From an uncultured Bacteroidota bacterium (GTDB lineage: Bacteria; Bacteroidota; Bacteroidia; Bacteroidales; P3): DNA of 64,000 nucleotides. Made by a program: the position numbers and the translations under genes. Location: contig CACYKY010000005.1 in assembly GCA_902775135.1 (NCBI GenBank), forward strand, positions 62,001 to 126,000, written 5' to 3'. Below, in pieces: positions 51,966 to 64,000 of the stretch. A model generated the notes under the pieces. The model was not told the origin of the DNA, did no database searches, and worked only from the letters and a program-made list of their open reading frames with translations. Numbering within the stretch: position 1 is the first letter of the stretch; each line of letters starts with the position of its first letter.

Positions 51966-52139
51966 CGCCCGTTTTATTTTATCGAAGGACGTAGACTCAG
52001 CCATCAGGTGCGACGCAATATTTTTTGCGAATTTGCGTTGTATAGGCATACATTTAAGACGGTTTGAAGTATGATACGACTGAATTGTTTTTTCCAGGCC
52101 CATGACGGCGAGCAGTACAAGACCGCGCTGGAGGCCGCC

Positions 52140-52307
52140 AAGGGTGTAGAAGGCGAGGCTGCTCTCGACACCAAGGGCATGCAGACTATGCGCGCCCTGG
52201 GACGCAACATGGCTTTTTTGCTGAAGAGCATCCACTCGCAGGAACCCATACCGTACCCTGAAGTGGAGCCGTGGGAGCCAATGCACTTCATCAGACAGGG
52301 TGTTTAG
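52140..52307 (+). pseudogene. C-terminal remnant of a flavodoxin-family reductase gene
   Basis: Residues VEGEAALDTKGMQTMRALGR, then NMAFLLKSIHSQEPIPYPEV and EPWEPMHFIR, align almost residue for residue with the C-terminus of the gene at 63502 on the opposite strand. The flavin-binding N-terminal two thirds are absent. The open frame can be entered at 52071, but the preceding codons do not resemble the family. Confidence 0.8.
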
Positions 52308-52321
52308 TGGCTTGAGAAAGG

Positions 52322-53587
52322 ATGGATAAGATGACGACTGATCAGGAACGGGCATTACGGTTGGCTGTGGAGGCAGGTCATATCCTGCTGGAGAACGGGG
52401 CTGAAATCAGCCGCGTGGAGGAGACCATGCGGCGAATCTCGTCGCACTACGGGGTGGAGGAACAGAGTTTCTTCGTGCTGAGCAACGGCATTATCGCCAC
52501 AGGTCAGCAGTACGCCAGCGCGAAGTTCATCCCCATCAAGGGCATGCAGTTGTCTCGTGTGGCAGAAGTGAATCAGTTGAGTCGCGATATTGCCAACGGT
52601 AAGCACGGAGTGAGTCTCGACGAGCTGGCGTCGCGTCTGAAGTCCATCCGTTCCAGCAAGGGCAAACCTTGGTGGGAGTATATGCTTGGCGTTGCCTTCG
52701 GGGTGGCGACTTTCTGCCTCCTCTTTGGCGGCAGCCTTCTCGACGGGGCGGCCACCTTCGGCTGCGGTCTTTTGCTGGGACTCTTCATGGCGTTTGTCAT
52801 CCCCCATATGTCGCGCCTGATAGGCAACCTCACCGGGGGACTTGTCGGTGGCCTGCTGTGCATCGCCGCCTACCATCTTGCGCCTGATGTCTTCCACCTG
52901 CCGAACATGATTATCGGCACCATCATCGCCTTGGTGCCCGGAGTGCCTTTTACCAACGGTATCCGCGACTTGGCCAACGAGGACTATATCGCTGGAACGA
53001 CGCGTCTGCTCGACGCTTTTTTGGCGTTCCTCAGCATTGCCCTCGGTGTGATGGTGGCACTCATACTCTATGGCACCCTTGCGGGTGGCTTGACGCAGCT
53101 GGGCATGCCGACGGTCGACAGTGTGGCGGCAGCGTGGTACATACAGCTGCCGGCGGCCTTCATTGGCACCCTGGGATTTTCGGCACTGTTCGGTGTTCCA
53201 AGGAAATACTACCTCTCCTGCGGAGTGACGGGCATGCTCGGGTGGGGGCTCTTCCTGCTGCTGGTACCCCTGTTGTCGGTGGCGGGCGCTGCTTTTTTTG
53301 CAGCGCTGTTGGTGGCCATGGTGAGTCATCTATTGGCGTGGGCGCGTTGCTGTCCTGTGACGTTGTTCCTTATCTGCGGCATCATCCCTCTGGTGCCGGG
53401 AGGCGGCATCTTCTGGACGGCCTACCACTTGGTGGCCAACCACCTGCAACTAGCAGCCTCCACGGGCTTCATTGCCCTGAAGGTTACTATCGCCATTGCC
53501 GGCGGCATCATCATCGCCACTGCCATTGGCACCCGCATCTATCGAAAAATACGTGTTGGAAACTTCATTTCGGATATGTCAAAATAA
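52322..53587 (+). CDS. Threonine/serine exporter family protein (fused ThrE type)
   Basis: 421 residues. The N-terminal cytoplasmic part (ALRLAVEAGHILLENGAEIS, RVEETMRRIS, FFVLSNGIIATG) is the DUF1212 domain, followed by about ten membrane helices in two groups (DUF1212 and DUF3815) as in the one-piece ThrE exporters. VPGVPFTNGIRDLANEDYIA is the conserved signature. It exports small amino acids such as threonine or serine; substrate is inferred. Confidence 0.88.
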   Translation: MDKMTTDQERALRLAVEAGHILLENGAEISRVEETMRRISSHYGVEEQSFFVLSNGIIATGQQYASAKFIPIKGMQLSRVAEVNQLSRDIANGKHGVSLDELASRLKSIRSSKGKPWWEYMLGVAFGVATFCLLFGGSLLDGAATFGCGLLLGLFMAFVIPHMSRLIGNLTGGLVGGLLCIAAYHLAPDVFHLPNMIIGTIIALVPGVPFTNGIRDLANEDYIAGTTRLLDAFLAFLSIALGVMVALILYGTLAGGLTQLGMPTVDSVAAAWYIQLPAAFIGTLGFSALFGVPRKYYLSCGVTGMLGWGLFLLLVPLLSVAGAAFFAALLVAMVSHLLAWARCCPVTLFLICGIIPLVPGGGIFWTAYHLVANHLQLAASTGFIALKVTIAIAGGIIIATAIGTRIYRKIRVGNFISDMSK

Positions 53588-56118: not shown

Positions 56119-56146
56119 AAGGGCATCCCGCGGGATGCCCTTTTTG
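56119..56146 (+). terminator. Rho-independent terminator of pnp
   Basis: AAGGGCATCCC / GGGATGCCCTT perfect stem, two-base loop, then TTTTTG-type run. Confidence 0.9.
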
Positions 56147-56336
56147 TTATCATTTAATAAAGGATATATATTCTTGATAGAATGCTATATAGCTCTCTAT
56201 TGGTTTTGCTCCCCTATTGCTCCCCTGTTGTCCCCCTTTTGGGTGCCTATATGGTAACTCTATACTAAATATACTGTTCCTCCGTTCTTCATTATATCAG
56301 ATCGTATTCAGATTCCCTTCGGGTAATACCTATACT

Positions 56337-57125
56337 ATGGCAAAGGTCAAACCATCCATCATTGAGCAGACAGGCACCATCGGTGACCGTGTCTTCTACA
56401 CCCGTTTCGGCAAGCAGTTCAGTCGCAGCAAGGCCACGTCGTTCAACGACAACAAGTCGGAGGCACAGCTGCGGCAGCGTGCGCTTTTCAAGGCCATGCA
56501 GCACACCTCCTCCATCCTCGGCTCCGTCATCCAGCGCGGCCTCGCCAAGGAAGCCCACGCCCACGGGCATGTCGAGAACAACGAGTTTGCCAGAATCAAC
56601 AAGCAATGCTTCACCTACGACGACGGCACGGTGCAGATCGACTATCCCCGCCTGATACTCTCCACTGGTCCGATAGCCCGCGTGGATTTTACCAATTGCC
56701 ATGTCGATGGCTTGCATGTTGAGCTTCAGTTCGAACCCTGCAGTAGTGCCGCTCATTCCAATCCCGACGATGTAGTCTTCATCTATGCCGTAGAGTTCCA
56801 GACGGAGGTCTGCCAACTCGTGGCCTTTGCCGAACGGCGAGCTGCTGGCGTCGTCTTCGACCTGCCCGACCTCAGCGAGGAGATAGAATCAAAATGCAAG
56901 AATGAGTCAAAGGACAAACAAGCAAATCGGACTAACGCACTATCACATTCACACGATAACACAATCAATTATTCCCTCTATGCCATCGTCGAGGCCGCCA
57001 ACACCGCCTGTGTCTCGACCCTTTCCCCCGACGAGAAGAAAGCCGACAAAAACCACCGCAATATCAACAGGCGTGTGTCGCCGTCGGTATTCATCGGCAC
57101 CATTACCGTTGGCTCAGATAATTGA
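56337..57125 (+). CDS. DUF6266-like hypothetical protein
   Basis: 262 residues from ATG 56337; the frame continues upstream to 56217 but without coding character. The start MAKVKPSIIEQTGTIGDRVF and the FGKQFSRSKATSF that follows resemble the DUF6266-type proteins of Bacteroidota, which are common in accessory DNA and lack a known role. An internal low-complexity stretch at about 195-215 (Lys/Asn/Ser) separates the last domain. Confidence 0.55.
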   Translation: MAKVKPSIIEQTGTIGDRVFYTRFGKQFSRSKATSFNDNKSEAQLRQRALFKAMQHTSSILGSVIQRGLAKEAHAHGHVENNEFARINKQCFTYDDGTVQIDYPRLILSTGPIARVDFTNCHVDGLHVELQFEPCSSAAHSNPDDVVFIYAVEFQTEVCQLVAFAERRAAGVVFDLPDLSEEIESKCKNESKDKQANRTNALSHSHDNTINYSLYAIVEAANTACVSTLSPDEKKADKNHRNINRRVSPSVFIGTITVGSDN

Positions 57126-57126
57126 T

Positions 57127-57157
57127 TTCGCCGTTACAGAAAAAATGTGTATCTTTG
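57127..57157 (+). promoter_or_regulatory. Promoter upstream of the WG-repeat gene
   Basis: TTCG (57127-57130), 19-bp spacer, TATCTTTG (57150-57157). The following leader of about 200 bp is long and has no clear gene. Confidence 0.55.
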
Positions 57158-57359
57158 CAGTGTGAAAACAATATTGAATATGCATGATTGCGTTAATGAA
57201 GAAATGTGTTAGTGAATGACTGGAATAAAAATAACGGGAATATGACACAGCAGATCGCCATACAGATATCTGAAGGTAATTAGGTTTGAGTTGCTTGAAT
57301 AAGGAGCAATCTGTTGAGTTGCTTACAAATTGTAAGCAGTTGAAATAATTGATTTGGAA

Positions 57360-59399
57360 ATGAATGATTTGAAGATAAAATACGATGGGAGATACTATGG
57401 TGTTGTTGGAAATAGGAACGCTGTGGTTGTCCCATTCATATATGACGAAATATTGCGGACGTTTTCCTCGGGACTAATAAACGTTTGCAAGAATGATAAA
57501 TGGGGATGCTTGGATTTGGAAGGCAATGTTGTGATTCCAATCGGATATGATTGGATTGCTCCTTTTGGAAAAGATGTTTTGAGTACATCAAATGTTAGAA
57601 AAAATGGCAAATGGGGCATTCTAAATCGCAGGGGTGAGGAGATAATACCATGTATATATGATGAAGAGATTGTATTTAAAGACAATTGCGCAATTGTATC
57701 TAAGAATGGCAAAATGGGTATTATTAACAAAAAGGGGGAAAGTTTAATCCATTGTTGCTATTCCTATTTAAAACCTTTTGTTAATTCGTCTAAACTATTC
57801 AAGGTTACACGGAATAATAAATATGGTGTTGTGGATATTATGGGTGATATTATAACTCCACTGGATTTTGATGAAATAGGCGAATTATATGGTGAGGCTA
57901 TTGTTGTAAAACGGGATGGCCTCTATGGGCTGATTAGCATAATGGGGGATATTATTATTCCTATCGAATATGAGGGGATTGATAAATCTTATCATGACAT
58001 TAACCATTTTGAAATTGATTTAAAAAGTGATTTTTATTCTGTGAAAACAAAAGGTAAATGGAAATACATTCTTGCTAATAATGATTATAAAAACAATAAT
58101 CGATATGACTGGATATCTGGACCATGGGGGGATAATTATATTGTTAAGTTAGAGAACAAGTATGGTATTATTAGTAGACTTGGTAGAAATATTGTTCCTA
58201 TAATTTATTCGGAAATATTTGTCGAATATGAATATTATGTTCTAAATTTAAAAGGGCAAAAAGGTATATGTGATAATAATGGAGAATTATTATATTCAAT
58301 ATCATGCAGTGACATTCAAATTCTTTCAAGGAAATCAGCGATAATCGAGAAAGACAAACGCTTTTTTCTTTTTTTCTTTGGCAAAGACAAAGCATCCATA
58401 GAATATGATGAGATTCGTCGTTTTGGTGGTACATTTTGCAAAGTAACCCAAAACGGGAAATGTGGTGTCATTAATGATGAGGGAGGAGTTATTATCCCAA
58501 TAATCTATGATTATATAAATTATAAAGGGAGAAAAAAAGTTGAGGTTATAAAAGATAATAAATTTGGAATAATAGACTTAGCAGGAAATACAGTTCTTCC
58601 AATCAAATACGGTGTTATTAAGAAGATGGAAGGAATTGTTGAAACAGATGATAAAACCGAAAAATGGTCGGCATTTGTTGGTCAAGAGAAAATCCCACCA
58701 ATTTATGGCGATGCTATGATTATGCAATTAAATGGGAAATACGGTGTTGTTAATTCCAGGGGGATAGAGCTGATTCCATTCAAATATGATATGATTGATT
58801 TTTTCAAGGGTATTTTTATTGTAAATTCGAGAAAAAAATTTGGCGTAATCGATATTAACAATAATCGAATATTTCCAATAATATATGATGAAATTATTCC
58901 CCAACAAAAAGAAGGTCTTCTTTTGGCAAAAGAAAAGAAACTATGGGGGGTGTTAAGTATAACAGGGAATGAGGTAATTCCTCCAAAATATACCAAAATA
59001 AATTTAGTGGGTAAAAAACTTATTGTTAAGCTGGATGACAAGTATGGTGTAATTGACATTAATAACCGGCAAATTATTCCAACTATTTACGATGAAATCA
59101 TACATGACCATACAGAAGACTTATTTTTGGTAAAAGATGATAAACATTGGGGCATACTTGATAGTAATGGGGCTGAAATAATTCCATTAAAATATGAAAA
59201 AATGGATGATTGTTTCTCTTGCCATCGACTTGCCGTTTCCCATGATAGTAAATGGGGGTTTGTTAATGAAAAAGGAGTTGAAGTAATCAAATGTATTTAT
59301 GATGGAGTTTTATCAGAGTGTTTTGAAGATAATAAGTGTTTCGTGAAACAAAATGGTGAAATAATAGAAATTGACATATACGGTATCATGATAAAATAA
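57360..59399 (+). CDS. WG-repeat protein
   Basis: 679 residues from ATG 57360. About sixteen WG repeats follow one another, each a variant of KYGVIDINNRQIIPTIYDEI: KWGCLDLEGNVVIPIGYDWI, KWGILNRRGEEIIPCIYDEE, KFGVIDINNNRIFPIIYDEI and so on. No signal peptide or membrane segment, so the protein should be cytoplasmic. The gene is strikingly AT-rich, with codons such as ATA, TTA, AAA, unlike the GC-rich neighbours, which suggests recent acquisition. WG repeats are predicted binding scaffolds; the partner is not identifiable. Confidence 0.88.
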   Translation: MNDLKIKYDGRYYGVVGNRNAVVVPFIYDEILRTFSSGLINVCKNDKWGCLDLEGNVVIPIGYDWIAPFGKDVLSTSNVRKNGKWGILNRRGEEIIPCIYDEEIVFKDNCAIVSKNGKMGIINKKGESLIHCCYSYLKPFVNSSKLFKVTRNNKYGVVDIMGDIITPLDFDEIGELYGEAIVVKRDGLYGLISIMGDIIIPIEYEGIDKSYHDINHFEIDLKSDFYSVKTKGKWKYILANNDYKNNNRYDWISGPWGDNYIVKLENKYGIISRLGRNIVPIIYSEIFVEYEYYVLNLKGQKGICDNNGELLYSISCSDIQILSRKSAIIEKDKRFFLFFFGKDKASIEYDEIRRFGGTFCKVTQNGKCGVINDEGGVIIPIIYDYINYKGRKKVEVIKDNKFGIIDLAGNTVLPIKYGVIKKMEGIVETDDKTEKWSAFVGQEKIPPIYGDAMIMQLNGKYGVVNSRGIELIPFKYDMIDFFKGIFIVNSRKKFGVIDINNNRIFPIIYDEIIPQQKEGLLLAKEKKLWGVLSITGNEVIPPKYTKINLVGKKLIVKLDDKYGVIDINNRQIIPTIYDEIIHDHTEDLFLVKDDKHWGILDSNGAEIIPLKYEKMDDCFSCHRLAVSHDSKWGFVNEKGVEVIKCIYDGVLSECFEDNKCFVKQNGEIIEIDIYGIMIK

Positions 59400-59600
59400 C
59401 TGATGATTATCAGCTAATTCGACAGATGGCCTATCATTATACCAGCATTTGTGGGCATCAAGTCATTATTACTATGGCTTTATCTATCAAATAGATGATT
59501 GTGTATTCACAATCATCCTTAAAAAAAGAATAACAACCGATTATAGACTTTGTTGACATTGTTGTCTAGGGGGAAACGAGGTCTTCATTATGTCGATATC

Positions 59601-59678
59601 ATGGCAATTGAAACCGACAAATTAGTCTACCAACTCTACAACCTAACCCCCGAAGAAATAGCTATAATCGAACAATAA
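59601..59678 (+). pseudogene. C-terminal tail of a restriction-modification gene
   Basis: The last 25 codons read MAIETDKLVYQLYNLTPEEI and end AIIEQ before TAA. The pattern x-T-D-x-LVY-x-LY-x-LT-x-EEI-x-I-x-E is the C-terminus of Type IIG/Eco57I-like and PglX-type DNA methyltransferases and of related specificity subunits. The rest of the gene is absent, so a methylase gene has been lost next to the surviving defence-like genes. Confidence 0.6.
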
Positions 59679-60163
59679 CGTGTAGAGCACAGCATTTTTA
59701 CGTATTTCTACAAAGATACACGCTTTGTAATATTGAACTTGAATTCGGTGGTGAGGTGGGTTGGTCTGTTTTCTAAAGTACCACATCATACCGTTCAACT
59801 AAAGAGGAGATGTGATTGCAATATCCATTTCCAATAAACGAACGTAACTGTCGCTGACACAGTTGTTACAAACAAAAAGAACTACGTTCAGTCAGCTTTT
59901 CCTGTAAAAAACGTGTAAGAGACATCACAAACAGCATTTTTTGCAGCCGTTATACTTTCTCCCAAACGTTAAATAATTATAATTTTAATTCGTAAACATC
60001 TATGGATGAGTACGAAAAATAATTTTCGCATTGGAACTGTAACTTAATCTGAGTAATTCACTTAAGAAGATGGTTTTTTTTTTCTGATAAATTCTTTTAC
60101 CATATTTATTTTGAAATACTTATATTTTTTGAACAAAGTTATGATTGAATTAAAATAAAGTCG

Positions 60164-60171
60164 TATTTTTG
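60164..60171 (+). promoter_or_regulatory. -7 box of the AbiH-like gene
   Basis: TATTTTTG, 18 bp before the ATG of the AbiH-like gene; no convincing -33 box. Confidence 0.5.
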
Positions 60172-60188
60172 CAAAAAAAATAATTATT

Positions 60189-61139
60189 ATGGAACGAAAC
60201 AATAAGACCACATTAAAAGCAATGATATTCGTAGGCAATGGATTTGACGTTGCACACGGATATAAAACTAAATATATAGATTTTTATACCAACAGCATTG
60301 AATTAAAAGAGCTGGCGAGTAAGGGAAATGTTTTATGTCAGCACATTTTAGACAATATCAAAGGTGATTTATGGCAAGATTTGGAATGTGGACTATATGA
60401 ATATTCAAAAAGTCTTACATTAAAGCATGGTGAAGGAGATAAAAAGTCCTCGACAGTTTTTAAACAAGAGTTTAGTGAACTACGTTCTGCCCTTTTCAAT
60501 TATTTAAAGAAGGCTTCCAATGTTAGCATCACGAACAATCCTGGCTACTTTGTTGGAGAACTATCAAAAGTCTGGGCAAGGTTGGATTATCAGATTGTGT
60601 CATTTAATTATACGCCTATTGTCGCTGCATATACAAATGATGCAGATCTGTATAGCTCAAATCTATCCTTTAATAAAGAAAAAATAGTATATCAGCATGG
60701 ATGCATGTATAATCCCGAACGGGGAATTGATAATACTGCTGAGGATATAGTCTTGGGCATTGATGATAACCAAAAGGTTGAACGGTTACATTCCTTTTTG
60801 TACAAATCTCTTCAAAAAATATCTGACAATACTGACCTTGTTGATGCAATGAGGGAAAAGAATATTTATATCGTTTTTGGGTGTTCTTTGGGACCATCGG
60901 ACCATAATTACTTCAGTACATTATTTGATGCGAATATGCGGGACAAGACATACATTATTTATGGCCATGGAAATGATGCGTTGGAGTCCATAAAGGGATA
61001 TGCAATGGAATATACAGGAGGCATATATAACTTCCAAACAAAAAACCATAATAAAATACATTTCATTGATGATAGTATTCAACAAAGCGCCATGTCGGAA
61101 ACAAAAAATGTAATTGATGGTCTTCTGACAACGAAATGA
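60189..61139 (+). CDS. AbiH-family abortive-infection protein
   Basis: 316 residues. The N-terminus MIFVGNGFDVAHGYKTKYID matches the GNGFDlahg-x-T-x-Y signature of AbiH (Gly16-Asp20, Thr27-Tyr29), and YQIVSFNYTPIVAAY and IYIVFGCSLGPSDHNYF are further family landmarks. AbiH proteins reduce phage multiplication in lactococci by an unknown mechanism. First of three co-directional AT-rich genes, 99 bp before the HNH gene. Confidence 0.85.
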   Translation: MERNNKTTLKAMIFVGNGFDVAHGYKTKYIDFYTNSIELKELASKGNVLCQHILDNIKGDLWQDLECGLYEYSKSLTLKHGEGDKKSSTVFKQEFSELRSALFNYLKKASNVSITNNPGYFVGELSKVWARLDYQIVSFNYTPIVAAYTNDADLYSSNLSFNKEKIVYQHGCMYNPERGIDNTAEDIVLGIDDNQKVERLHSFLYKSLQKISDNTDLVDAMREKNIYIVFGCSLGPSDHNYFSTLFDANMRDKTYIIYGHGNDALESIKGYAMEYTGGIYNFQTKNHNKIHFIDDSIQQSAMSETKNVIDGLLTTK

Positions 61140-61238
61140 CAAAGTTGATCCTATAGAAATTCCTCTATTACGTTAGATGGTCGTTTTTGCTAAAATAATC
61201 GAATCATATAAAAAAAACCTTTGCAAAAAAATATTGAT

Positions 61239-61904
61239 ATGGGTATTACAGATAAAGTACGGAAAGACCTTTGGGCTAAATCTGGCAATAGATGTGCAAT
61301 ATGTAAAAAAGAATTCTTCACCAGTATCGATACGGACGACTTTAATATCGGCGATGAATGTCATATTGTAAGTTCTAAACCTAATGGACCACGACATATT
61401 GAGAACTACGGTGATTATGACGCATACGACAACATCATATTATTATGCAAGAATCACCATAAGGAGATAGATGATCCTGCTAATCTTAACATATACACCG
61501 TTGCGAAACTCACTGAAACAAAAAAGGAACATGAAAAATGGGTCAGGCAGAGCTTAAACCCTGAAAAGATAGAGGTTTTCCCATTAATAAGTAATGGAAC
61601 TGATTTGGTTTCTATCATTGGGGGAGCGGTTGTGGTTTACAAGTTCAATGATGAGATAAAATCAGAGAATGAGGCTGAACTTGTAGGGGGATTTTGGCAA
61701 GAAATAACTGATTTTATGGATATTTTCTTAGATTTAGAACCCATAGAAATTACACGTACAGAATTCTCGTATTCCAAATTAATAAATGAGTTAAACGAAT
61801 CAGGGTTTCTGGTTTATGGAAGAAAAATAAAAATTCCTTTTCTAAAAAAGTATGGAGACGAAACGCTGTATAGTGCGGCTAAAATATATATAAAGCGAAA
61901 GTAA
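61239..61904 (+). CDS. HNH endonuclease-like protein
   Basis: 221 residues from ATG 61239. The zinc-bound HNH module is visible: Cys19-x2-Cys22 (NRCAICKKEF), ECHIVSSKPNGPRH (His42), YDNIILLCKNHHKEID (Asn65, Cys70, His73/74). About 130 C-terminal residues are acidic and have no known motif, possibly a sensor or partner-binding domain. It lies 23 bp before the DUF4062 gene, so these two are almost certainly one transcript. Confidence 0.85.
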   Translation: MGITDKVRKDLWAKSGNRCAICKKEFFTSIDTDDFNIGDECHIVSSKPNGPRHIENYGDYDAYDNIILLCKNHHKEIDDPANLNIYTVAKLTETKKEHEKWVRQSLNPEKIEVFPLISNGTDLVSIIGGAVVVYKFNDEIKSENEAELVGGFWQEITDFMDIFLDLEPIEITRTEFSYSKLINELNESGFLVYGRKIKIPFLKKYGDETLYSAAKIYIKRK

Positions 61905-61927
61905 TTCATAATTAGAAAACCGACAAT

Positions 61928-63097
61928 ATGTCAAAGATAAATATATTTATAAGCTCTACCTGCAAAGACTTACACCAAGACCGTTTGGTCTTAAAGAGTA
62001 AAATTGAGAATTTAGGACACAATGTGATCCTTTCGGAATCATTTACATTCCCTATTGATCCGTCTAAGAACACTATAGACAACTGCATTGACATTGTCCG
62101 TAATGAGGCTGACATCTTTATTCTCATAATAAAAGACAACTACGGGAACATTGTTCCGCGAACGGGTCGCTCTGTTACACATATGGAACTCCAAACAGCA
62201 CAGGATAAGGGTATACCAATTTACACATTCACTCATAGCGAGACTCTACGACAGAAAGTGTTGTTAGAAGGTCAGCTTAATGAAGGCTCTGAATTTCTAA
62301 AAGTATGCAAGTTTATTGATGAGGTTAGACAAGAGAGAAGTCTTTGGAATTTCGAATACAACGGTGTTGAAGATATTCTAAATACAATTAAAACACAGTT
62401 GTCCATTCTGATGAAACACTCTTTATCGGTGCGAAACAAGGTTGATGCCATTGATAAAAAATGGATATTCCCTCATATCTCACCAGAGGCATATCGCTTG
62501 CTTGTCTATAAAGAGAAAAACTATGTGGAACGATTCTTCTTCCAAGTGATGAAAGATGAGATGGAACGCCATGTGGACTTGAAACTTGACTACAAATATT
62601 CTCACCTTCTCAACGCCGGTTATACACAGAAAAGCCTACGTGAGTTTGCCAGATGGATTAAGGATATTTTTGATGAGATTGCTTTCTTTTTCAGATCTGA
62701 AATAAAGTTGGAAGAAGAATTCTTCGATTCCTATAAAAAGGATGACTCTGATTTCCGTCAACTGTACCATGTGGCAAAACGATTTGCAAATAGATATGCA
62801 GATATTCTGGAGTTGGGGATACATCTGAAATCAGAATATGTATATCCTGAATATGCCTCGATACAAGGCAGAATAACGGGAATGGTTGATAATGCCATTT
62901 CTCAACTGGAGAATATGCCACAGTCCGCTCTGGATGCCATTGACAAAAATGTCAAAGACGAAATAGCTTCAAAGTCTGAGATATCAGCGAGTATGGATTT
63001 TCCCAGCATTATAGATGTTTCAGATGAAGAAATGGAGGAAATATTTAGAGAGATAAAACAAATTGCGGAACAAATTAAGGCAAGAGCAAAAGAATAG
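61928..63097 (+). CDS. DUF4062 (TIR-like fold) protein
   Basis: 389 residues. The N-terminal about 110 residues match DUF4062: INIFISSTCKDLHQDRLVLK, NEADIFILIIKDNYGNIVPR, VTHMELQTAQDKGIPIYTF. This fold is related to TIR and nucleoside-deoxyribosyltransferase domains and appears in immune-type receptors. The C-terminal two thirds are long helices (VKDEIASKSEISASMDFP) with no motif I can name. Co-transcribed with the HNH gene; with the AbiH-like gene they form a candidate defence cassette. Confidence 0.75.
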   Translation: MSKINIFISSTCKDLHQDRLVLKSKIENLGHNVILSESFTFPIDPSKNTIDNCIDIVRNEADIFILIIKDNYGNIVPRTGRSVTHMELQTAQDKGIPIYTFTHSETLRQKVLLEGQLNEGSEFLKVCKFIDEVRQERSLWNFEYNGVEDILNTIKTQLSILMKHSLSVRNKVDAIDKKWIFPHISPEAYRLLVYKEKNYVERFFFQVMKDEMERHVDLKLDYKYSHLLNAGYTQKSLREFARWIKDIFDEIAFFFRSEIKLEEEFFDSYKKDDSDFRQLYHVAKRFANRYADILELGIHLKSEYVYPEYASIQGRITGMVDNAISQLENMPQSALDAIDKNVKDEIASKSEISASMDFPSIIDVSDEEMEEIFREIKQIAEQIKARAKE

Positions 63098-63501
63098 TGT
63101 GAGATGATTTCATAGAACCCACAAAGAAGGATCGTATAACCCACAAAGAAGGGGTGAAGAAGCCACGAAGAAGGGATGAGGAATGCGTTAGCGTGTTAAT
63201 GCGTTAGTGCGTTAGTGATAATACACGAGGTTCCGCCGTGGTGTGCCGTCGGCTTAGCTGACTGGTATGCCGTCAGCTCGGCTGACAACTGTCGTCGAGA
63301 CATCGCCGAAGGCTACAGGAGAACAGGACTTGTTAGTAGGTTAGTCCGAACAACCAAAGTGGCAACTTTTTGCCGTAAGGGTATTTTGTTTAATATGCTA
63401 AACAAAAATTTAAAAAAATGTTTAACGCATTAAACATAAATAGTGATAAAGCAATATTCACAGGAGCATAAAGAAGAATGCATTCTGGAGTATGTGCGGC
63501 T
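63098..63501. other. Intergenic stretch with repeats
   Basis: Three copies of CCCACAAAGAAGGG-type sequence (about 63117-63177), four TGCGTTAG-type units (about 63185-63220) and two palindromic GTCAGCYxxGCTGAC blocks (63248-63262, 63272-63286). No gene seen. Confidence 0.6.
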
Positions 63502-64000
63502 TCAGCGGATGAAGTGCATGGGGTTCCAGGGCTCTCGTTCGGGGTAGGACGGATTGTCTGAGTGGATGCGTTGCAGGAGGAAGGCCATGTTGCGGCCGAG
63601 GGCACGCATGGTCTGCATGCCTTCGGTGTCGAGTGCGGCCTCGCCTTCGGCTCGGCCGTAGACGATATTCCAATACTGCGACGTGACCATCGGCATGTGC
63701 TGCAACTGGAACACCATGGTGAGCGACTGCAGGGCGGCCGTGGCGCCACCACGGCGGCAGACGGCGATGCCGGCTGCGGGCTTGTTCATCGCGAGGTCGG
63801 AACGCGAGTAGAACAGACGCTGCATGACGGCGAGCAGGGCACCGTTGGGCTGGCCGTAGTAGGTGGGGGTGCCCACGATGAGGGCGTCGCTCGCGGCGAG
63901 TTTCTCCGAGAAGAGGTTGCAGGGGTCGTCGTCGAAGACGCAGCGTCCGAGCTCGCGGCAGCGTCCGCAGGCGATGCAGCCGTGCACGGGTTTCGGGCCG
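63502..64000 (-). CDS. Flavodoxin-family NAD(P)H-dependent reductase, partial
   Basis: The gene enters from beyond the right edge; 166 residues are visible. CIACGRCRELGRCVFDDDPC is the cysteine-rich loop of this flavoreductase group, followed by SDALIVGTPTYYGQPNGALL (flavin-binding) and KPAAGIAVCRRGGATAALQS. The C-terminus EGEAALDTEGMQTMRALGRN and EPWNPMHFIR repeats the remnant at 52140-52307. A GTG at 63987 could be an internal start but the frame is open to the edge. Confidence 0.85.
   Translation of the reverse strand, partial: GPKPVHGCIACGRCRELGRCVFDDDPCNLFSEKLAASDALIVGTPTYYGQPNGALLAVMQRLFYSRSDLAMNKPAAGIAVCRRGGATAALQSLTMVFQLQHMPMVTSQYWNIVYGRAEGEAALDTEGMQTMRALGRNMAFLLQRIHSDNPSYPEREPWNPMHFIR

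What the first reader, a model, noticed from the sequence alone, without database searches (positions are those of the whole stretch)
60189..63097. AbiH / HNH nuclease / DUF4062 cassette: candidate undescribed three-gene defence system
Seen: three co-directional AT-rich genes with gaps of 99 and 23 bp, next to a restriction-modification gene tail and a WG-repeat gene. Known: AbiH is an abortive-infection protein described as acting alone, HNH nucleases are frequent effectors, and the DUF4062 fold is related to TIR-like domains of immune receptors. Inference: the HNH and DUF4062 proteins (both with unassigned long C-terminal regions) may act as effector and sensor, with AbiH as a partner or as an independent neighbour.
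Basis: partly seen in the sequence, partly recalled or inferred. Interest (0 to 1): 0.75.

Follow-up and report, generated by a model that had tools for sequence, protein, structure and literature searches.

The report
Nuclease plus TIR-like NADase defence pair
In a gut-type Bacteroidales genome, a small nuclease gene travels together with a gene for a recently recognised NAD-destroying immune enzyme (DUF4062, 'Swarozyc'-like) as a two-gene anti-virus cassette, while the AbiH gene beside them is an unrelated neighbour in the same defence hotspot.

Summary
The three genes are real and correctly placed, but they are not a three-gene system. AbiH is absent from the four other genomes of the genus that carry DUF4062. 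HNH and DUF4062 form a ~2 kb two-gene block (90-93% DNA identity, gap 23-27 bp) found in four genomes, with the DUF4062 gene in four chromosomal contexts; both genes are under purifying selection. A fifth genome keeps DUF4062 and only the last codons of HNH, behind a PARIS system. In the genus, HNH never occurs without DUF4062. Outside the genus the two occur apart: DUF4062 with a Fic gene on Enterococcus plasmids, HNH relatives in type I R-M, retron-like and other loci.
DUF4062 is not merely a sensor. A May 2026 preprint shows that this domain is a TIR-like NADase acting in a single-gene abortive-infection system (Swarozyc). The catalytic Glu aligns (window E87 with KpSwz E97). The helical C-terminus differs from KpSwz and is probably the sensor. 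HNH resembles the nuclease domain of CBASS SAVED-HNH effectors but has another C-terminal domain.
Best reading: a Swarozyc-like NADase with an accompanying DNase, in a defence hotspot behind pnp that is empty in a relative. New variant of a known kind; interaction untested.

The parts
60189..61139 (+). AbiH-family gene (316 aa); independent neighbour, not part of the module; TATTTTTG -7-like box at 60164-60171 just upstream
   Evidence: PF14253 E=8e-24; absent from the other four carriers of the module
61216..61223 (+). remnant of the module's own promoter -7-like box (AACCTTTG here; TATCTTTG in L012, L014 and L039)
   Evidence: leader comparison; Bacteroidota -7 consensus TAnnTTTG is own knowledge
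61239..61904 (+). HNH nuclease (221 aa): HNH domain 1-107 plus about 110-aa C-terminal domain of unknown function
   Evidence: PF13391, PADLOC SAVED_HNH 3.6e-27, PDB 9om4 4.9e-14 and 7rwm 7.9e-14, invariant C19 C22 H42 N65 C70 H74 across divergent relatives
61928..63097 (+). DUF4062 TIR-like (Swarozyc-like) NADase (389 aa): TIR-like domain about 1-160, catalytic Glu87, predicted helical C-terminal putative sensor domain
   Evidence: PF13271; profile match to KpSwz 10wc_A E=6.7e-5 with E87 aligned to the E97A position
59610..59678 (+). 3' tail of a lost type IIG R-M methyltransferase, a remnant of the earlier island content
   Evidence: 86% to the C-terminus of L012 MTase, E=1e-8
57354..59399 (+). 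WG-repeat protein (681 aa), variable cargo of the same hotspot
   Evidence: PF14903, 12 repeats; a related 815-aa gene at the same site in G008
56145..63481 (.). whole variable island between pnp and an FMN-reductase gene; absent in relative G009, where the two flanks lie 54 bp apart

Best explanation
HNH plus DUF4062 is a two-gene anti-phage cassette. The DUF4062 protein is a Swarozyc-like sensor-executioner: its helical C-terminal domain (residues about 165-389) recognises an infection signal, possibly a phage structural protein, clusters the TIR-like domains and triggers NAD+ hydrolysis with Glu87 as catalytic residue, causing abortive infection. The HNH protein is a DNase that accompanies it as a second effector, probably held in check or activated through its own 110-residue C-terminal domain. 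AbiH upstream is a separate system. Shown here: gene content, pairing within the genus, catalytic-residue conservation, purifying selection, mobility as a unit. Inferred: NADase activity of this protein, the trigger, DNase activity, and any functional coupling between the two proteins.
For: Block of ~2 kb at 90-93% DNA identity starting at or just before the HNH leader and ending about 100 bp after DUF4062, in four genomes with different upstream neighbours. HNH in 4 of 5 DUF4062 carriers and in no genome of the genus without it. dN/dS 0.11-0.19 (HNH) and 0.14-0.22 (DUF4062). DUF4062 = TIR-like NADase, defence shown for homologues, NADase and abortive infection for KpSwz (PMC13174449); window E87 aligns with KpSwz E97. 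HNH domain closest to nuclease domains of CBASS SAVED-HNH effectors. Known defence genes at the carrier loci: PARIS, type IIG R-M with PLD-SNF2 helicase, HEC-04-like ATPase.
Against: The pair is known from one genus only: 65 other DUF4062 loci (most with only about 1.5 kb flanks) have no such HNH, and HNH relatives elsewhere lack DUF4062. G038 keeps an intact DUF4062 after losing HNH, so DUF4062 may work alone. The genes have partly different recombination histories (W vs L012: dS 0.52 in HNH, 0.09 in DUF4062). The KpSwz sensor domain is not detectably similar to the window's C-terminus. No experiment.
Confidence: 0.5

Rival explanations
1. Two independent single-gene defences that happen to be neighbours: a stand-alone Swarozyc-like NADase and a stand-alone HNH restriction-type nuclease, co-transmitted by linkage in hotspots.
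For: Both families occur apart outside the genus; DUF4062 survives alone in G038; Swarozyc works as a single gene (PMC13174449); HNH allele exchanged separately.
Against: Same order and 23-27 bp gap in four genomes and three chromosomal contexts while everything else around them turns over; HNH never without DUF4062 in the genus.
Confidence: 0.33
2. Thoeris-like signalling: DUF4062 makes an ADP-ribose-derived signal and the HNH protein is the effector that it switches on through its C-terminal domain.
For: Canonical TIR proteins do this in Thoeris (PMC12578639); HNH with its own extra domain resembles ligand-gated SAVED-HNH effectors; the preprint notes DUF4062 genes in operons with diverse enzymes.
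Against: KpSwz yields ADP-ribose and nicotinamide, and the TEP1 domain gave no further ADP-ribose derivatives; the HNH C-terminus matches no known ligand-binding family; the same HNH family occurs without any DUF4062 nearby.
Confidence: 0.1
3. Three-gene system including AbiH.
For: Co-directional, 99 bp gap; the HNH promoter box is degraded in the window, so AbiH read-through may help to transcribe the pair.
Against: AbiH is absent from all other carriers, whose upstream slot holds other genes; the homology block starts downstream of AbiH.
Confidence: 0.03
4. Toxin-antitoxin-like pair in which one protein (most likely HNH or DUF4062) restrains the toxicity of the other until infection.
For: Small gap, single leader, toxic activities on both sides are plausible; a homologous DUF4062 is paired with a Fic gene on Enterococcus plasmids.
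Against: DUF4062 persists intact without HNH in G038; KpSwz is autoinhibited without a partner.
Confidence: 0.04

Closest known systems
Swarozyc (KpSwz, DUF4062 TIR-like NADase; PMC13174449, PDB 10wc/11cq/11cv)
   Same: DUF4062/TIR-like N-terminal domain, catalytic Glu at the same alignment position, long C-terminal auxiliary region, defence-island setting
   Different: Window protein is 389 aa with a predicted helical C-terminus not detectably similar to the KpSwz auxiliary domain, and has an HNH gene directly upstream; Swarozyc was tested as a single gene
DUF4062-Fic operon on Enterococcus plasmids (NZ_KJ645709, NZ_CP078506, NZ_CP040462, LR962858)
   Same: DUF4062 protein homologous over 310 residues at 33%, into the C-terminal region; partner gene directly upstream with about 20 bp gap
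   Different: Partner is a Fic-family protein, not HNH; function untested
CBASS SAVED-HNH effectors (Cap5 type, e.g. PDB 7rwm)
   Same: HNH nuclease domain, 3-107 of the window protein
   Different: No SAVED domain, no CD-NTase beside it; other C-terminal domain
Thoeris (TIR signal producer plus separate effector)
   Same: A TIR-like enzyme with a partner enzyme in one operon
   Different: No ThsA/SIR2-SLOG; DUF4062 homologues shown to hydrolyse NAD+ to ADP-ribose; no evidence of a signal
AbiH
   Same: The neighbouring gene belongs to this single-gene family
   Different: Not a component of the module

Membership tests
Swarozyc / DUF4062 TIR-like NADase | DUF4062 domain | tested here: met
   PF13271 E=1.2e-17; profile to KpSwz E=6.7e-5
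Swarozyc / DUF4062 TIR-like NADase | catalytic glutamate (KpSwz E97) | tested here: met
   E87 aligns with the mutated (E97A) position of chain 10wc_A; invariant in window, relatives and Enterococcus
Swarozyc / DUF4062 TIR-like NADase | C-terminal auxiliary sensor domain like that of KpSwz | tested here: inconclusive
   A long, predicted helical C-terminus exists, but the profile finds no match to KpSwz beyond residue 104; AF2 model too poor for a fold comparison (pLDDT 48)
Swarozyc / DUF4062 TIR-like NADase | NAD+ hydrolysis and abortive infection on a phage trigger | not testable with these tools
   needs biochemistry and phage assays
CBASS SAVED-HNH effector | HNH nuclease domain | tested here: met
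   PADLOC 3.6e-27, PDB 7rwm 7.9e-14
CBASS SAVED-HNH effector | SAVED domain and CD-NTase gene | tested here: not met
   no SAVED match beyond residue 107; no CD-NTase match among the island proteins scanned
Thoeris | ThsA effector (or variant) with TIR ThsB | tested here: not met
   no ThsA or ThsB match in PADLOC
AbiH | AbiH family protein | tested here: met
   PF14253 E=8e-24 over 14-254; PADLOC AbiH only weak and partial (1.4e-5)

The most novel reading that the evidence does not exclude
DUF4062 (TIR-like) proteins with this helical C-terminus form modular two-gene immune systems with exchangeable partner effectors (HNH nuclease in Bacteroidales, Fic protein in Enterococcus), in which the DUF4062 reaction or complex switches the partner on: a Thoeris-like branch built on DUF4062 instead of canonical TIR.
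Probability: 0.15. Interest if true: 0.75.

Novelty: new variant of a known kind. Interest (0 to 1): 0.45.

Why it matters
DUF4062 proteins are a freshly recognised NADase branch of immunity shared with the human vault protein TEP1. The preprint itself says that operons of DUF4062 with other enzymes may involve more than NAD+ loss. This locus gives a concrete, compact two-gene example (HNH plus DUF4062) with natural HNH-minus and allele-swapped versions, and a second one with Fic, so partner dependence can be tested directly.

Tried and rejected
Three-gene system with AbiH: rejected by gene content of the other carriers. SAVED/CBASS and Thoeris membership: no defining partner. Broad conservation of the pair: rejected; none of 65 other DUF4062 loci has the HNH, though many were seen with only about 1.5 kb flanks. 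AlphaFold2 models of both proteins were poor (pLDDT 48 and 52, alignments of 5-6 rows), so no fold search was run. Viral contig scans: no DUF4062 relative, two HNH-domain relatives only. Phage records: only the DUF4062 domain in an Acinetobacter phage, two records. The genome-contig scan reached only close relatives. No Rfam match in 56-64 kb. Sigma-70 and terminator scans gave no more than chance.

Full report
Observation. The three ORFs, their order, strand and gaps (99 and 23 bp) are as described. Domain searches give AbiH (PF14253, 8e-24), HNH_2 (PF13391, 8.6e-5) and DUF4062 (PF13271, 1.2e-17). PADLOC 2023 has no DUF4062 model that matches, but relates the HNH domain to SAVED-HNH effectors of CBASS (3.6e-27, residues 3-107). 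The island is AT-rich (30-38% G+C from 57 to 63 kb against 51-63% in most flanking kilobases). The R-M tail at 59610-59678 is real.

Which genes belong together. In a census of the genus (120 genomes) the full-length DUF4062 protein occurs in five: the window genome, G018 (UBA2714, L014), G023 (RUG061, L012), G038 (RGIG2786, L013) and G892 (L039/RUG197 by matching coordinates and identity). Four have HNH directly upstream with 23-27 bp between. The fifth, G038, has an intact DUF4062, but only the last codons of HNH remain (GGCTAAAATATATATAAAGCGAAAGTAA), shortly after a PARIS AriA/AriB pair. A search of 99 genomes of the genus found HNH at full length only in DUF4062 carriers (more distant HNH proteins in G001 and G004 have another C-terminus and other neighbours). 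AbiH homologues occur in two other genomes of the genus at 25-29% identity, neither a carrier. DNA identity of 90-93% starts at or just before the HNH leader (window 61202-61219) and ends about 100 bp after DUF4062. So the unit is HNH-DUF4062, and AbiH is cargo of the same site.

Its own leader. In L012, L014 and L039 the HNH gene starts behind CGTATCTTTGCAAAAAAA, a good TAnnTTTG box; in the window this is AACCTTTGC. AbiH has its own TATTTTTG box at 60164-60171. That these are promoters is inference.

Hotspot. The island lies between pnp and an FMN-reductase gene. In relative G009 the same flanks are 54 bp apart (window 56144 and 63482), an empty site. G023 carries, at the same place, a PLD-SNF2 helicase, a type IIG-like R-M protein, a DUF2971 gene and HNH-DUF4062. 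G047 carries the R-M genes and other cargo without the pair; G008 carries a WG-repeat gene. L013 and L014 are on contigs other than that of pnp, and L039 has different flanking genes. This gives four contexts for DUF4062 (three for the intact pair) and explains the R-M tail in the window as a remnant.

Selection and exchange. dN/dS is 0.11-0.19 for HNH and 0.14-0.22 for DUF4062, so both genes are maintained. The copies are mosaics: W and L012 are 99-100% identical from about 62165 to 62914 and 83-93% over most of HNH, so alleles are exchanged within the module.

What DUF4062 does. PMC13174449 (May 2026 preprint) shows that DUF4062 is a TIR-like domain. Five bacterial proteins were tested for defence, KpSwz (Swarozyc) hydrolyses NAD+ when its auxiliary domain binds a phage portal protein, and E97 is required. 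The profile of the window family matches the deposited KpSwz chain (10wc_A, E=6.7e-5) and places window E87 exactly on the mutated catalytic position (chain residue 84 equals residue 97 if the first residue of the 15-C construct is an added one, which is my count). The C-terminal 225 residues are predicted helical and show no similarity to the KpSwz auxiliary domain. They are partly shared with an Enterococcus plasmid protein (33% over 310 residues of the whole protein; C-terminus alone E=1e-4). There the gene directly upstream is a Fic-family protein.

What HNH is. Residues C19, C22, H42, N65, C70 and H74 are invariant in an alignment with relatives from Bacteroidota and Actinomycetota; that they bind zinc or catalyse is by analogy with HNH nucleases. 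The 110-residue C-terminal domain recurs in those relatives (20-30 identities in about 100 positions) and has no Pfam or PADLOC match. These relatives sit in a type I R-M operon (L117), beside a retron-like reverse transcriptase (L116) and in other loci, not with DUF4062. Labels for L116 and L117 are my reading of the ORFs, not family searches.

How widely the pair occurs. Of 65 other DUF4062 loci collected here none has this HNH nearby (many with only about 1.5 kb flanks). The pairing is therefore a clade-specific association, strong within the genus and unproven beyond it.

Mechanism. Most likely a Swarozyc-like sensor-NADase with an accompanying DNase (0.5); next, two independent single-gene defences travelling together (0.33); a signalling pair is possible but has no direct support (0.1).

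Novelty. DUF4062 defence is known since 2026, and the preprint mentions operons with diverse enzymes; HNH and AbiH are not named in its main text. The HNH-DUF4062 cassette is thus a new variant of a known kind.

Noticed in passing
L042/L043/L044/L045 (Enterococcus plasmids), L042:6266-8161: DUF4062 protein homologous to the window's, directly downstream of a Fic-family gene (about 20 bp gap) on four plasmids, 93-100% identical DUF4062; the Fic motif reads QIFGDGNKRT, with Gln where the catalytic His is expected.
   Followed up: partly
window 56145-63481: Variable island behind pnp; empty site in G009 (54 bp between flanks), R-M based cargo in G023 and G047, WG-repeat cargo in G008.
   Followed up: yes
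L013:6682-8917: PARIS-like AriA/AriB pair lies just upstream of the last codons of HNH in front of an intact DUF4062 gene.
   Followed up: yes
L116:2756-6137 and L117:111-5990: Relatives of the HNH protein with the same C-terminal domain beside a retron-like RT with a possible phosphoribosyltransferase gene, and in a type I R-M operon: perhaps a nuclease that joins many systems.
   Followed up: partly
window 52071-52355 and 63502-64000: A second, truncated copy of the FMN-reductase 3' part lies 11 kb away (39-nt inverted match; the similarity extends in translation).
   Followed up: no
window 63107-63216: Short repeated motifs (CCACAAAGAAGG, AATGCGTTAG) downstream of the module, shared with L012, L013 and L039; the homology of the module ends within them.
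   Followed up: no
window 57354-59399: WG-repeat gene of 681 aa with a related 815-aa gene at the same site in G008; function unknown, recurrent cargo of this hotspot.
   Followed up: no
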